64,000 nt of DNA from positions 245,178-309,177 of IMG/VR virus record IMGVR_UViG_3300033995_001164. The stretch is one strand, 5' to 3'. Below are positions 44,362-52,052 of this stretch, piece by piece. Source of the stretch: a virus. Position numbers and translations under genes: made by a program. Positions within the stretch are counted from its first letter, which is position 1, and every line of letters begins with the position of its first letter. The notes beneath the pieces were generated by a model. The model worked only from the letters and a program-made list of their open reading frames with translations, was not told the origin of the DNA and searched no databases.

Positions 44362-45315
44362 CTAATTAATTTTAACACCCTTCTCAAGTGTTTCCTCAAG
44401 ATAATCTATAAAAGCTTTTGTTCTATCTTCTTTACCGTGATAATAATTACCATAACCTATTAGTTCTCCACTTTGGTCTGGTAATGGTTTTATTTCTTTT
44501 ACACCATTCTCAATTATATCACCAATCCAATCAACAACGACCTCATTCAATTTTTTTGTTTTTTTAACTCCATTTTTAATCACACCATCAATTCTTCCTT
44601 TGTGTTGATATACATCATAGTAAGTTTCATTAACACCCTTGTCAATCACCTTATCAATTATGTCTTCTCCCACATATTGTCGTGGGTTAGAACTTTTAAC
44701 ACCATTTTCAAGTGCATCATCAATGTCTCCGGTATATTCACGAGATTCTAATTTTGAAGTCATTTTCACTCCATCTTGTATGACAATTTCAATAACACAA
44801 GAACCATCCATTTGTAATGATTTGTTGGTTAGTTTCACCCCTTTAGTTTTCTTCACACCATCTTGTATGATGTCATCAACCTCACCTTCAGTAATGTTCA
44901 TTTCCAAACAGGTTTCTTTTACTCCGCCTTTAATAACATTTTCAACCCAACTTGTATTATCTTCCGGGTTCCAACAAGTTTCTTTAATCCCATTCTCAAA
45001 AACCTCCATCAGATTATATGATGGTGTTTGAGATGGTGACGCGGTATTCTTAGAACCATTCATTACATTATCTTCTACCCATTTTGTGATGAGGTGTTGG
45101 TTTTGAACAACCTCCAATGAGGCATACCCAAAAAGATTTTTAAAGAAATTAAAATTATACCACAGGGTTTTACTTTCAGTTAATTCTATCACCCATTGTT
45201 TGGACTCCGTAAAGATTAACCAAGTGGAACCATTATGATTATATGTGTCAACACCTTGGACAGAAGAATTAATTAAGGTGTTTATTATTTTTCCCATAAT
45301 CTTTTTATTAGACAT
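44362..45315 (-). CDS. Repeat protein, diverged 22-residue units
   Basis: 317 residues from MSNKKIMGKIINTLINSS (box ATATATTTAAAAATA before it). The N-terminal 90 residues share SxxWxI, WVIEL, LWYNFNFFKNLF and LITKWVE with the array genes at 62683-64000. Then about eight diverged units follow the pattern (I/V)(E/D)xx(I/L)xxGVKxT, mostly 22 residues apart. Here the DNA of the units has diverged while the protein pattern is kept, which argues that the repeats are translated and selected as protein. Confidence 0.75.
   Translation of the reverse strand: MSNKKIMGKIINTLINSSVQGVDTYNHNGSTWLIFTESKQWVIELTESKTLWYNFNFFKNLFGYASLEVVQNQHLITKWVEDNVMNGSKNTASPSQTPSYNLMEVFENGIKETCWNPEDNTSWVENVIKGGVKETCLEMNITEGEVDDIIQDGVKKTKGVKLTNKSLQMDGSCVIEIVIQDGVKMTSKLESREYTGDIDDALENGVKSSNPRQYVGEDIIDKVIDKGVNETYYDVYQHKGRIDGVIKNGVKKTKKLNEVVVDWIGDIIENGVKEIKPLPDQSGELIGYGNYYHGKEDRTKAFIDYLEETLEKGVKIN
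44365..45084 (-). repeat. Diverged 66-base coding repeats
   Basis: Units such as ENVIKGGVKETC, VIDKGVNETYYD, VIKNGVKKTKKL and DIIENGVKEIKP recur at 22-residue spacing (some at 23, 29 and 42). The DNA is not conserved enough to look like CRISPR. Confidence 0.65.
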
Positions 45316-45589
45316 TATTTTTAAATATATTTGGTTGAATCTCAGCATCTTCAAAAGATTCTGTGGATACAAACTCACTTTTCAAATAATTAATTACATG
45401 TTCCATCATCTCGTAATCTTTAAAATCTCCGTTTTTATGTCCAGCCTTCATTAATAAAGACATACCCGCAGCCAACATCATTGTTGATTCCTTAACAGAT
45501 AATGCCTCTTGGTCTTTTGGGAATCCAATGTCAAAGTAGTTTCTATCGTTTTCACGTCTCCACGTTACACCAATTGTTAATCCATCCAT
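45308..45589 (-). CDS. Hypothetical protein
   Basis: 93 residues, MDGLTIGVTWRRENDRNYFD ... MLAAGMSLLMKAG. Host-type promoter. Overlaps the repeat-protein start by 8 bases. Confidence 0.65.
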   Translation of the reverse strand: MDGLTIGVTWRRENDRNYFDIGFPKDQEALSVKESTMMLAAGMSLLMKAGHKNGDFKDYEMMEHVINYLKSEFVSTESFEDAEIQPNIFKNNV

Positions 45590-46149: not shown

Positions 46150-46176
46150 TAACAAAGATTCCACATAACCAAAAAA

Positions 46177-46241
46177 AGGGTTGGGATTCCATCGAACGAA
46201 GTGAGTGACCGGACGAAGTGAGTGACCGGACGAAGTGAGAC
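46177..46241 (-). repeat. Terminator element copy 1, with 17-base tandem repeats
   Basis: Contains the shared core GGGATTCCATCGAACGAAGT plus the 17-base unit ACGAAGTGAGTGACCGG at 46196-46212 and 46213-46229 and a partial third. On the minus strand the hairpin is followed by T7. Lies just after the cupin-like gene. Confidence 0.65.
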
Positions 46242-46648: not shown

Positions 46649-46708
46649 AATGAATATACCTTATGGAATAAAAGTATAATTCTAATTTATGGTTATGTCA
46701 AATAAAAA

Positions 46709-46737
46709 ACCCCAAATCTAATTAAAGAAATGGGGTA
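46709..46737. terminator. Hairpin between cupin gene and array
   Basis: ACCCCA / TGGGGT stem with a 16-base loop and A-rich flank. Confidence 0.5.
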
Positions 46738-46760
46738 TGTTTAAAAACATATTGGTAACA

Positions 46761-47058
46761 TTTTTTTTTTGTGTTTAAATTGTAATGATTCCCAACTTGC
46801 TCCCCTGTTAGAGTTAAAATGTTATGTTGTGACTATCTTTCAAATTGTGATGATTCCCAACTTTGAATTTCGTTGAGGCTAACTTACAGCGGTTGCGACT
46901 ACCTTTCAAATTGTGATGATTCCCAACTCAAAATGTTATTCAATTGGGGATTTTATGTTGTAACTACCTTTCAAATTGTGATGATTCCCAACCCTATTAA
47001 CGAGGTTTATATCGGTGTCCTCGTTGTGACTACCTTTAAAATCGAGACACATCCCAAT
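46761..47058 (-). CRISPR. CRISPR-like array A: 5 repeats of 36 bases, 4 spacers of 29-30 bases
   Basis: Minus strand. Full repeats at 46957-46992, 46892-46927 and 46826-46861 (start GTTGGGAATCATCACAATTT, end GGTAGTCACAAC, with 1-base changes); degenerate end copies at 47023-47058 (5' part decayed) and 46761-46796 (3' part decayed). Spacers 30, 29, 30 and 29 bases, all different. No gene covers it. A host-type promoter at 47262-47269 points into it through about 200 bases of leader. From memory the 3' half resembles type VI-B (Cas13b) repeats, which are also 36 bases with 30-base spacers and this orientation. No cas gene is adjacent except TnpB. Confidence 0.8.
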
Positions 47059-47255
47059 AATGGCTTTTCAAATGAAATTGTGATAGTCTATCCGTTCTCG
47101 GATAATGAGGTTTTGAGACCCCTAGCCGCCTAACCGTTCCGGCAATCACACGTTGACCGTGTTCTTTTACCCGGGTTATATCTGCATACAGTGTTTTAAC
47201 CTTTTAACGTGTTACACACACGCGAGTTACCAATATGTTTAAGAACTTTTTTATT
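47059..47255 (-). ncRNA. Predicted leader transcript between tnpB and array A
   Basis: About 197 noncoding bases between the promoter at 47262-47269 and the first repeat. It holds a diverged repeat-like stretch (CTATCACAATTTCATTTG, about 47067-47084 on the minus strand) and GC-rich pairing potential near 47110-47160. Could be an array leader, a tracr-like RNA or the 3' omega RNA of TnpB. Confidence 0.45.
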
Positions 47256-47261
47256 ATGATA

Positions 47262-47269
47262 CAAAGATA
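47262..47269 (-). promoter_or_regulatory. Host-type promoter pointing into array A
   Basis: TATCTTTG on the minus strand, six bases past the tnpB stop codon; no gene starts downstream, so it must serve the leader and array. Confidence 0.6.
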
Positions 47270-47274
47270 AGTAA

Positions 47275-48477
47275 TTATTCTCTAACTAACAAACTTTCTC
47301 TGATATTTTTTGCTGCGTTTATATCTCTATCGTGGTGTTCCTCACAAGACTTACAGGTCCATTCCCTTTGGGATAACTTTAACTCAGTATTTATATCCCC
47401 ACAGTTAGAACAAGTCTTACTTGTATTACGGGGGTCAATCCTATTAAATTCAATTCCTTTTGAATTACAAACACTTCCCAAATAATCGACAAATGAACGA
47501 ATCCCGATTCTTGCAGTGGATTTAGCCATATGTTTATTCTGTAACATAAATGACAAACGAATATCCTCAACTTGTATTTTAGAAAACTTACCTTTAGTTA
47601 AAACACCAACAACATATCTGTGATATTCTTTTCTAATATTATTTAATTCATTCTGTAATCTACCCTTCTTCTCAATTACTCTCCAATAATTTTTGGATTT
47701 AGGTTTACCCTTGTTTAATCTGTTCTTACGAGATATACTCTTTTGAATAATTGAAATCTTATCTTCCAATTTTTTAATCCTCTCAATTGGTACCTGATAT
47801 TTAAGTCCTTCGGATGTAATTGCCATATCTTTAATACCTACATCAATTCCCAATGATTTACCCGAACTATTAATCTTAACAATTTCAGTATCCTTTAAAT
47901 CCAATGTTAAAGATAAATACCAATTACCATCAGACTTCCTATGGATTGACATTAACTTTGGTGTAGACCCTTTGAATTGTTTATGAAACTTACATTTTAT
48001 AATTGGATTTATCCCAACTTTTTTAAGTAAAGTAGGAGCAAACCTAATTTCATTATTATCCCAATCCAAACTTAAACTTCCACGACTAATACTATTTGAA
48101 TTAGTCGTTAATTTCAATATATTCGTTTTTTTCTTATACGAAGGTTTTCTTGATTTTGGTTTTTTTCTGAAATTTTTAATTGATGTGACCAAAGATTCAG
48201 AAACATATTCCCTAAATATTGATGGAACATTATCAAACCAATTAATCGTTGAAAGATAATTAGAGAAAAGAGATTTACTCTTTAAGTTCGGAGCAGGAAA
48301 GTCCTTAAAATCTTTCCCATCAATAAATTCACTAACCAAAAGATTATATCCCCCTCTTAATTTATTACCAATATCAAATAACCATCTCTTTTGTTTATCA
48401 TCCGGGTATATCCTATACTCAACTGATACTCCAACATAAGATGGACCCTTTTTTCTTTCAACCAAAAAATGATTCAT
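47275..48477 (-). CDS. tnpB: TnpB-family RNA-guided nuclease (IS200/IS605 OrfB type)
   Basis: 400 residues from the ATG behind a TATATTTG promoter at 48497. RuvC-I Asp 212 in LGIDVGIKD, RuvC-II Glu 304 in IQVEDIRL, zinc finger Cys 356/359 and 375/378 (CSNCG, CKSC), RuvC-III Asp 385 in DRDINAAKN: all catalytic residues present. The family makes a guide RNA from the 3' side of its gene and cuts matching DNA; Cas12 nucleases descend from it. No tnpA is nearby. A CRISPR-like array follows at 197 bases on the same strand, which is unusual. An active RNA-guided nuclease is likely; whether it uses the array is open. Confidence 0.9.
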   Translation of the reverse strand: MNHFLVERKKGPSYVGVSVEYRIYPDDKQKRWLFDIGNKLRGGYNLLVSEFIDGKDFKDFPAPNLKSKSLFSNYLSTINWFDNVPSIFREYVSESLVTSIKNFRKKPKSRKPSYKKKTNILKLTTNSNSISRGSLSLDWDNNEIRFAPTLLKKVGINPIIKCKFHKQFKGSTPKLMSIHRKSDGNWYLSLTLDLKDTEIVKINSSGKSLGIDVGIKDMAITSEGLKYQVPIERIKKLEDKISIIQKSISRKNRLNKGKPKSKNYWRVIEKKGRLQNELNNIRKEYHRYVVGVLTKGKFSKIQVEDIRLSFMLQNKHMAKSTARIGIRSFVDYLGSVCNSKGIEFNRIDPRNTSKTCSNCGDINTELKLSQREWTCKSCEEHHDRDINAAKNIRESLLVRE

Positions 48478-48504: not shown

Positions 48505-48540
48505 AAACAAAGAATTCAAATCACCAAATATATAATGAAA

Positions 48541-48590
48541 AAAAGGAATGGGATTCCCTCGAACGAAGTGAGAAACCGGACGAAGAGCAC
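48541..48590 (-). repeat. Terminator element copy 2
   Basis: GGGATTCC-CTCGAACGAAGTGAG core and CCGGACGAAG tail shared with copy 1; with it, brackets the cupin-array-tnpB block. T7 on the minus strand. Confidence 0.65.
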
Positions 48591-49955: not shown

Positions 49956-49993
49956 TAATAAATTTTTTATTCCACCAAATATATAATAAAAAA

Positions 49994-50041
49994 AAGGGTT
50001 GGGATTCCATCGAACGAAGTGAGTCCGAACTGGGAGAGACC
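49994..50041 (-). repeat. Terminator element copy 3
   Basis: Core GGGATTCCATCGAACGAAGT plus GAGTCC. Stem GGATTC / GAGTCC around TCG-AA-CGA; T8 follows on the minus strand. Confidence 0.7.
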
Positions 50042-50567: not shown

Positions 50568-50690
50568 CTAAAAAAAAAGGGGATGGGATTCCATCGAACG
50601 AAGTGAGTCCGGACTGGAAGGTATACGAATATCCCCTCCAATTAAAATATTAATCAAATCACCTTCAGTAAGTCTAACAATATTCCCCAT
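50568..50690 (-). CDS. Small leader peptide (RLTEGDL type)
   Basis: 40 residues: MGNIVRLTEGDLINILIGGD then codons supplied by terminator copy 4. The first 20 residues match the leader of the 30379-31077 protein (VRLTEQELIDLI). GTATTTATAAT box upstream. Either a decayed late gene cut short by the terminator element or an internal head peptide. Confidence 0.5.
   Translation of the reverse strand: MGNIVRLTEGDLINILIGGDIRIPSSPDSLRSMESHPLFF
50579..50628 (-). repeat. Terminator element copy 4
   Basis: Same core as copies 3 and 5, extended by CCGGACTGGAAGGTATA; T9 on the minus strand. Lies inside the small frame at 50568. Confidence 0.7.
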
Positions 50691-51334: not shown

Positions 51335-51360
51335 ATTGATAAATACTTGACTATCAAAAA

Positions 51361-51410
51361 AGGGCTGGGATTCCATCGAACGAAGTGAGTCCGGACTGGA
51401 AGGTATATGA
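51361..51410 (-). repeat. Terminator element copy 5
   Basis: Nearly identical to copy 4 over about 48 bases, including the upstream GGACTGGAAGGTATA. Confidence 0.7.
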
Positions 51411-51431
51411 ATAACCCCGCCCATTATAATA

Positions 51432-52052
51432 TTAATCAAATCGAATTATTCGATATTCATTAGTGTTAGGATAGAATTCCACATTCTCATCATATTGTTC
51501 CTGAGTCAATTCCCGACACTTATCCAATATGTCCTTTATCCCACCATTACAGATGGTATATCCTTTCTGTATATATTTCTGAACTCTTCTCAAAGAATCA
51601 AAGACAAATAATGGTTCAAGATGATTTATAATAATCCTCTTATGGTAAACATCCAATAAACCGGAGGGGTTACATATAACCTTCTCCCCATCAAACATAA
51701 ACTGACATACCGTAAAATCAAATGAATCAATAATATCCGTTAATTTATCATATTCCCTATATATAATCTGAACCTTAATCTTACCCTTTCTATAAGTCCT
51801 CAAGTTCTCATTGAAATAAACCAATTTATAACCATTACCCTTAGATAGATTCAACTTAACAAATAAATCCAAATCCTCTTTAGTTAATCCAAAGATGTCT
51901 ATATCACTATACTCATCCCCAAATAAACTATCCCGGACGGCTCCACCGGCAATTACAACATTCATCCTGTCCTTTTTCTCATCATCCCTAATAAAATTGA
52001 AATTAGGTAATTTAGTTAATAAAGAATCTTTCGGTAATTCACAATACTCCAT
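51432..52052 (-). CDS. Nucleotidyltransferase (Pol beta fold, CCA-adding-like head)
   Basis: 206 residues. VVIAGGAVRDSLFGDEYSDI followed by DIF has the GG-x(n)-DxD signature of class II tRNA nucleotidyltransferase heads (GGAVRD ... DIDIF). The C-terminal half lacks a clear full CCA-enzyme body. Could extend or repair RNA 3' ends, or transfer nucleotides to protein. Host-type promoter at 52067. Confidence 0.75.
   Translation of the reverse strand: MEYCELPKDSLLTKLPNFNFIRDDEKKDRMNVVIAGGAVRDSLFGDEYSDIDIFGLTKEDLDLFVKLNLSKGNGYKLVYFNENLRTYRKGKIKVQIIYREYDKLTDIIDSFDFTVCQFMFDGEKVICNPSGLLDVYHKRIIINHLEPLFVFDSLRRVQKYIQKGYTICNGGIKDILDKCRELTQEQYDENVEFYPNTNEYRIIRFD

What the first reader, a model, noticed from the sequence alone, without database searches (positions are those of the whole stretch)
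46761..47269. Promoter-driven CRISPR-like mini-array with Cas13b-like repeats on a phage genome
Seen: five 36-base repeats, four unique spacers of 29-30 bases, no gene across them, and a host-type promoter facing in after about 200 noncoding bases. In that orientation the repeat starts GTTGGG and ends GGTAGTCACAAC. Known (from memory): type VI-B repeats are 36 bases, start GTTG, end in a GG-TA-(x)-ACAAC-like tail, and have 30-base spacers with the repeat at the crRNA 3' end. No Cas13b or other effector lies in the window. Inference: a phage-borne array that uses, titrates or misdirects a host type VI-B (or II-C) effector, comparable to RNA anti-CRISPRs (Racr).
Basis: partly seen in the sequence, partly recalled or inferred. 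Interest (0 to 1): 0.93.

Follow-up and report, generated by a model that had tools for sequence, protein, structure and literature searches.

The report
Cas13b-type CRISPR mini-array on phage
A large phage, probably of Bacteroidota, carries a short CRISPR array in the style of bacterial Cas13b (RNA-cutting) immune systems but no Cas13b gene, so it probably feeds guide RNAs to the host's own enzyme, either to tie it up or to redirect it, which would fill a gap in the known catalogue of phage RNA decoys.

Summary
On the minus strand of a ~309-kb virus record lie three near-identical 36-nt repeats, a decayed first repeat, a half last repeat and four 29-30-nt spacers. A Bacteroidota-type promoter and a terminator bound them. 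The repeat belongs to the type VI-B (Cas13b) family. A degenerate pattern fitting it finds arrays in 23 Bacteroidota contigs, and 18 of those 23 genomes encode Cas13b. Of 396 Bacteroidota genomes sampled evenly, only the centre genome, itself a Cas13b carrier, matches. [quoted passage not shown] The phage record has no Cas13b and no convincing Cas1. The best reading is an effector-less VI-B mini-array that supplies crRNAs to a host Cas13b in trans. Whether these act as decoys (Racr-like) or as guides against rivals is unresolved, because no spacer has a convincing target. Viral effector-less arrays are known, but the published Racr survey found no type VI member. This is therefore a new variant of a known kind.

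The parts
47262..47293 (-). Bacteroidota-type promoter TTTG-N20-TATCTTTG driving the array; expected start near 47255
   Evidence: motif class 18 observed versus 4.1 in shuffles; position read directly
47226..47240 (-). Left arm of a perfect 15-bp inverted repeat at the 5' end of the transcript
   Evidence: pair probability 0.91-1.0; host VI-B arrays at most 10 bp, shuffles at most 11
47059..47225 (-). Non-coding 5' leader, 42% GC in a 31% GC window; function unknown
   Evidence: no Rfam match over threshold; folding z -0.69; leader-R1 pairing not above shuffles
47023..47058 (-). Repeat R1, 5' half decayed, 3' half kept
46993..47022 (-). Spacer S1, 30 nt; its 5' 18-mer occurs only in copies of this locus in viral contigs
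46957..46992 (-). Repeat R2, 36 nt
46928..46956 (-). Spacer S2, 29 nt; its 5' 19-mer occurs only in copies of this locus in viral contigs
46892..46927 (-). Repeat R3, 36 nt
46862..46891 (-). Spacer S3, 30 nt; its 5' 18-mer occurs only in copies of this locus in viral contigs
46826..46861 (-). Repeat R4, 36 nt
46797..46825 (-). Spacer S4, 29 nt; first 21 nt match the sense strand at the 3' end of a gene in three related phage contigs (borderline, wrong sense for Cas13)
46777..46796 (-). Repeat R5, 5' part only, followed by an A-rich run
   Evidence: genuine arrays L117 and L122 also lose the 3' half of the last repeat
46745..46759 (-). Right arm of the 15-bp inverted repeat
46704..46736 (-). 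Terminator-like hairpin plus T run (CCCCA...TGGGG then T6); several relatives have a similar one upstream of g135
   Evidence: read directly. The automatic scan missed it because the loop is long
47275..48477 (-). TnpB-family RNA-guided nuclease gene (400 aa from Met44 of the 443-aa ORF), RuvC D/E/D and zinc ribbon intact; neighbour, probably not part of the array system

Best explanation
This is a type VI-B (Cas13b) CRISPR array captured by a large phage that carries neither Cas13b nor adaptation genes. It is transcribed leftward from 47262 to the terminator at 46704. The host's Cas13b, if present, would process the transcript into spacer-plus-3'-repeat crRNAs (S1-R2, S2-R3, S3-R4; S4-R5 probably defective). 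Loaded Cas13b would then carry guides that do not match this phage. The net effect would be to occupy the host's Cas13b (decoy, RNA anti-CRISPR-like) or, if the spacers have RNA targets not in the databases, to redirect it against rivals or host transcripts. Shown: array anatomy, VI-B family of the repeat, absence of Cas13b from the record, promoter-type motif. Inferred: transcription, processing, presence of Cas13b in the host, decoy or guide effect.
For: 36-nt repeats, 29-30-nt spacers, period 65-66, as in VI-B arrays. Pattern scan: 23 contigs, all Bacteroidota, chance expectation about 0.7; 18/23 genomes encode Cas13b over the cut-off against 0/14 controls (proteins confirmed). Closest host repeats 31/36 (Chryseobacterium-family genome G535 and Tenacibaculum). 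The 13 positions the pattern leaves free are closer to VI-B repeats than shuffles (p 0.007 mean, 0.003 maximum). Profile score of the internal repeat exceeds 1,000,000 random sequences (25.7 versus best 15.0). Array BLAST: 1/396 Bacteroidota genomes sampled evenly (the centre genome itself, a Cas13b carrier), 8/323 in its family. R1 decayed in its 5' half and R5 lacking its 3' half copy the ends of genuine VI-B arrays. Substitutions in R2-R4 keep the Chryseobacterium repeat fold, 10/12 pairs each. No Cas13b, no Cas1 over the cut-off, and no relative of the Tenacibaculum HEPN protein in the record. No convincing spacer match to the phage itself. PMC13187072 shows that a VI-B crRNA-like RNA in trans sequesters Cas13b and cuts phage defence about 1000-fold.
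Against: The host and its effector are unknown. The nearest repeats differ at 5 of 36 positions, so no specific Cas13b is known to accept this repeat. The repeat fold is weaker than in hosts (-1.5 to -4.9 versus mostly -5 to -15 kcal/mol). No expression data. Only near-identical copies carry the array, so there is no evolutionary sign of selection. The record's completeness is not known. The scan pattern was drawn partly from VI-B repeats recalled from memory, so the scan alone is not independent; the free-position, profile and BLAST tests are more so.
Confidence: 0.62

Rival explanations
1. Guides, not decoys: the spacers direct host Cas13b against transcripts of competing phages or of the host, as viral mini-arrays of other types do.
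For: Four distinct spacers of normal length; huge-phage arrays with host-like repeats do target other phages (PMC7162821, PMC11656645). S4's first 21 nt match a gene end conserved in three related phage contigs.
Against: S1-S3 5' seeds have no match in 2.9 million viral contigs outside this locus. S4's match is sense, so the crRNA would not pair with that mRNA, and for so AT-rich a 20-mer about one chance hit is expected (own estimate). No match in cultured phages.
Confidence: 0.3
2. Inert relic: a piece of a host VI-B array picked up by chance, with no function.
For: Both ends decayed, R2-R4 each carry a substitution, array restricted to one phage population, no targets found.
Against: It has its own promoter, closing stem and terminator. 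The end decay is normal for VI-B arrays. The three substitutions in R2-R4 keep the repeat fold. The four records are identical over the array.
Confidence: 0.2
3. The neighbouring TnpB uses the array: the 170-nt leader is its omegaRNA/tracrRNA and the repeats are split guide scaffolds (type V-U or TranC-like).
For: Intact TnpB ends exactly at the promoter. The leader is GC-rich. CRISPR arrays beside viral TnpB genes are reported (PMC12607003), and about 50 TnpB-to-CRISPR transitions are inferred (PMC12669027). Leader GACUAUC can pair with GGUAGUC of the repeat.
Against: The repeat is of VI-B sequence. None of the other viral TnpB loci fetched has an array. Their 3' ends show no repeat-like tail. 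Leader-repeat pairing (p 0.2-0.36 for R2 and R4; p 0.7 for R1) and leader folding (z -0.69) are at chance level.
Confidence: 0.06

Closest known systems
Type VI-B CRISPR arrays of Weeksellaceae and Flavobacteriaceae (Chryseobacterium, Riemerella, Bergeyella)
   Same: 36-nt repeat of the same family (up to 31/36), 29-30-nt spacers, same polarity of end decay, A-rich tract after the last repeat in several
   Different: On a phage, without cas13b; own promoter; 15-bp inverted repeat closing the transcript; only three full repeats
RNA anti-CRISPRs (Racr), solitary repeat units of viruses and plasmids (PMC10651486)
   Same: Promoter-driven repeat mimic of a host CRISPR type on a mobile element, no cas genes
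   Different: An array with four spacers, not a solitary repeat; type VI, the one type for which that survey found none
Viral CRISPR mini-arrays exploiting host Cas proteins (PMC11656645; huge phages, PMC7162821)
   Same: Few repeats, no effector, host-like repeats
   Different: Spacer targets are not found here; the type is VI-B
Phage TnpB / type V-U loci beside arrays (PMC12607003)
   Same: TnpB of 400 aa next to a short array
   Different: The repeat is of VI-B sequence, so the adjacency is probably coincidental

Membership tests
Type VI-B CRISPR array | Repeat of the VI-B sequence family, about 36 nt | tested here: met
   up to 31/36 identity
Type VI-B CRISPR array | Spacers about 30 nt, period about 66 | tested here: met
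Type VI-B CRISPR array | Array polarity with decayed first repeat | tested here: met
Type VI-B CRISPR array | Repeat folds into the VI-B hairpin | tested here: inconclusive
   R2-R4 form 10/12 pairs of the Chryseobacterium consensus but fold weakly
Type VI-B CRISPR-Cas system | cas13b at the locus | tested here: not met
   none in the 309-kb record; hence an orphan array, not a complete system
RNA anti-CRISPR (Racr) | Solitary repeat unit | tested here: not met
   three full repeats with spacers
RNA anti-CRISPR (Racr) | Inhibits the cognate CRISPR-Cas system | not testable with these tools
   needs phage challenge with Cas13b
Viral CRISPR mini-array | Repeat matches the host's CRISPR | not testable with these tools
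   host unknown; the repeat family was found only in Bacteroidota
Viral CRISPR mini-array | Spacers target related viruses or the host | tested here: inconclusive
   no convincing target
TnpB / type V-U effector with CRISPR array | RuvC nuclease of the TnpB/Cas12 family adjacent to the array | tested here: met
TnpB / type V-U effector with CRISPR array | Repeat pairs with a tracr/omegaRNA scaffold | tested here: inconclusive
   best duplexes at chance level for R2 and R4

The most novel reading that the evidence does not exclude
A type VI RNA anti-CRISPR: the phage expresses a VI-B mini-array, held in a closed transcript by a 15-bp terminal stem, as a multi-copy decoy that saturates host Cas13b with non-matching guides. 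To my knowledge it would be the first natural RNA-based inhibitor of an RNA-targeting CRISPR system.
Probability: 0.3. Interest if true: 0.8.

Novelty: new variant of a known kind. Interest (0 to 1): 0.62.

Why it matters
A survey of viral and plasmid repeat mimics found candidates for every CRISPR type except type VI (PMC10651486). Separately, a Cas13b crRNA-like RNA expressed in trans was shown to reduce Cas13b phage defence about 1000-fold in a laboratory set-up (PMC13187072). A natural phage locus that would produce such RNAs links the two and is directly testable. It also suggests that huge phages of Bacteroidota meet RNA-targeting CRISPR often enough to capture its arrays.

Tried and rejected
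TnpB-linked array as main explanation: started as the favourite because of adjacency, dropped after the repeat proved VI-B and other viral TnpB loci proved array-free. Leader as structured tracr/omegaRNA: no Rfam match over threshold, folding and pairing at chance level. Leader-repeat hairpin of PMC13187072: not above shuffles (p 0.7). Repeat tail in viral contigs: three chance hits inside genes. S2 near-matches in phage relatives: AT-rich, 22/29 at best, not convincing. S4 match: wrong sense and borderline. Host VI-B spacers against the phage loci: only short or AT-rich near-matches. Close relatives of the TnpB in bacterial genomes: none found. VI-B repeats in cultured phages: none. Structure prediction of the Tenacibaculum HEPN protein: pLDDT 35, unusable.

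Full report
Where it lies. The window is positions 245178-309177 of a 309,177-base IMG/VR virus record whose ends are classed as linear and whose completeness is not given. The feature is on the minus strand. The array and its flanks recur without a mismatch in three other IMG/VR contigs, so it is not an assembly error. These are copies of the same phage population, however, and say nothing about spacer turnover.

Anatomy. Reading leftward: the TnpB gene ends at 47275 on top of a promoter TTTG-N20-TATCTTTG (47293-47262). This motif class occurs 18 times in the window against 4.1 in shuffles (maximum 7), so it is a genuine promoter style of this phage and points to a Bacteroidota host (the link of the motif to Bacteroidota is from my own knowledge). 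A 15-nt arm (47240-47226) follows, then a 167-nt leader of 42% GC in a 31% GC window, R1, S1, R2, S2, R3, S3, R4, S4, half of R5, an A-rich run, the complementary 15-nt arm (46759-46745), and a hairpin with a T run (46736-46704). The two arms pair with probability 0.91-1.0 in the predicted 552-nt transcript. Shuffles of the flanks give at most 11 bp, and the host VI-B arrays examined give at most 10 bp. The closing stem is therefore real in sequence and not a normal part of VI-B arrays. Its function is unknown; protection of the transcript ends is a guess.

Which CRISPR family. A degenerate repeat pattern that admits the phage repeat and the VI-B repeats I remembered was run over 257 billion bases of bacterial and archaeal genomes. 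It hit 23 contigs, all Bacteroidota, where about 0.7 hits were expected by chance (expectation my own estimate). Many were arrays with 65-66 spacing, among them Bergeyella zoohelcum and Riemerella anatipestifer. Of these 23 genomes, 18 encode Cas13b over the curated cut-off, against none of 14 control genomes; individual proteins were checked. Because the pattern was partly built from memory, three further tests were done. The 13 positions it leaves free are closer to the VI-B set than shuffles are (p 0.007 and 0.003). On a profile of 16 host repeats, the internal part of R3 scores 25.7, and even decayed R1 scores 17.7, against a best of 15.0 in one million random sequences. BLAST of the whole array against 396 evenly sampled Bacteroidota genomes matched only the centre genome, a Cas13b-bearing Chryseobacterium, and 8 of 323 in its family. 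The closest repeats are 31/36 identical.

An unexpected agreement. In genuine VI-B arrays the first repeat is often decayed in its 5' half but keeps its 3' half (for example L119 7/18 and 16/18; Riemerella L122 8/18 and 18/18). The last repeat can lose its 3' half (L117 17/18 and 6/18; L122 16/18 and 3/18). The phage array shows the same: R1 11/18 and 17/18, R5 17/18 and 8/18. The phage seems to have captured a VI-B array end to end. Each substitution in R2-R4 keeps the pairing of the Chryseobacterium repeat fold (10/12 pairs), although the fold is weaker than in hosts.

What the phage lacks. No Cas13b, no relative of the Tenacibaculum HEPN protein and no Cas1 over the cut-off were found in the record. 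Relatives of the phage share a flanking gene (60-94% identical in the nearest ones) but have neither TnpB nor array there. One relative has an HNH-endonuclease-like gene between the same neighbours, so this is a site of gene exchange.

Targets. Seeds of 18-20 nt from the 5' end of each spacer were sought in 2.9 million viral contigs. S1, S2 and S3 occur only in this locus. S4's first 21 nt match the 3' end of a gene in three related phage contigs. The spacer has the sense of that gene, so a Cas13 guide would not pair with its mRNA, and about one such hit is expected by chance for so AT-rich a word (own estimate). There is no convincing match to the phage itself or to cultured phages. Mismatched targets and most host genomes were not covered.

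How it most likely works. Host Cas13b would process the transcript into S1-R2, S2-R3 and S3-R4 guides. In VI-B the guide precedes the repeat, so a first repeat would otherwise give a useless guide from the leader; decay of R1 is consistent with avoiding it. Guides that do not match the phage would occupy Cas13b. PMC13187072 shows that expressing such an off-target VI-B guide in trans reduces Cas13b phage defence about 1000-fold, which makes a decoy plausible without any target. Guides against rival phages or host RNAs remain nearly as likely. A relic cannot be excluded.

The TnpB gene. The neighbour is a 400-aa TnpB (NCBIfam 184.5 bits against a cut-off of 100) with D, E and D RuvC residues and zinc ribbon and a phage-type promoter of its own at 48528. 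It has no close relative in viral contigs (among the near-full matches at most 36% identity) or genomes. None of the other viral TnpB loci fetched has an array. I regard the adjacency as coincidental or as shared residence in an exchange site.

Novelty. Effector-less viral arrays (PMC11656645, PMC7162821) and RNA anti-CRISPRs (PMC10651486) are known, but that survey found no type VI member, and 50,697 cultured phage records held no match to seven VI-B repeats. From memory, a 2022 Cell paper (Al-Shayeb and colleagues) reports phage-encoded CRISPR systems of all six types, some lacking components; it is not held in the library. Hence: new variant of a known kind.

Noticed in passing
L129 854-4111 (-); L139 1480-4770 (-): In Tenacibaculum agarivorans and a Flavobacteriaceae bacterium, a ~1090-aa protein (66% identical between the two) has RxxxxH motifs near both ends. 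It sits beside VI-B-like arrays and in a gene cluster with a CD-NTase-like gene and a TIR-like gene. It matches no Cas13b profile or PDB chain; possibly a divergent Cas13 linked to CBASS genes.
   Followed up: partly
L140 650-685; L141 450-485: Two 2.7-kb plasmids of Empedobacter and Elizabethkingia carry, in a non-coding stretch after RepL, a solitary VI-B-like repeat (30/36 and 27/36 to the phage repeat). About 0.75 such matches are expected by chance in the plasmid collection, but the bacterial family is right; a possible plasmid type VI decoy.
   Followed up: partly
window 46171-46206, 49984-50036, 50569-50660, 51356-51442, 48531-48584: Near-identical promoter-region repeats of the phage, apparently its own promoter family (TTTG, TATATTTG, CTTTCTAAATAA); one lies upstream of tnpB.
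   Followed up: no
L016 2235-3353 (+): In a relative, an HNH-endonuclease-like gene of 372 aa occupies the site where the window has tnpB plus the array, between the same two neighbour genes.
   Followed up: no
window 44362-45378 (-): 338-aa ORF built of about 25-aa repeats with the motif NGVKxT; function unknown.
   Followed up: no
L118, L119: Chryseobacterium VI-B arrays have strikingly variable repeats within one array, unusual for CRISPR.
   Followed up: no
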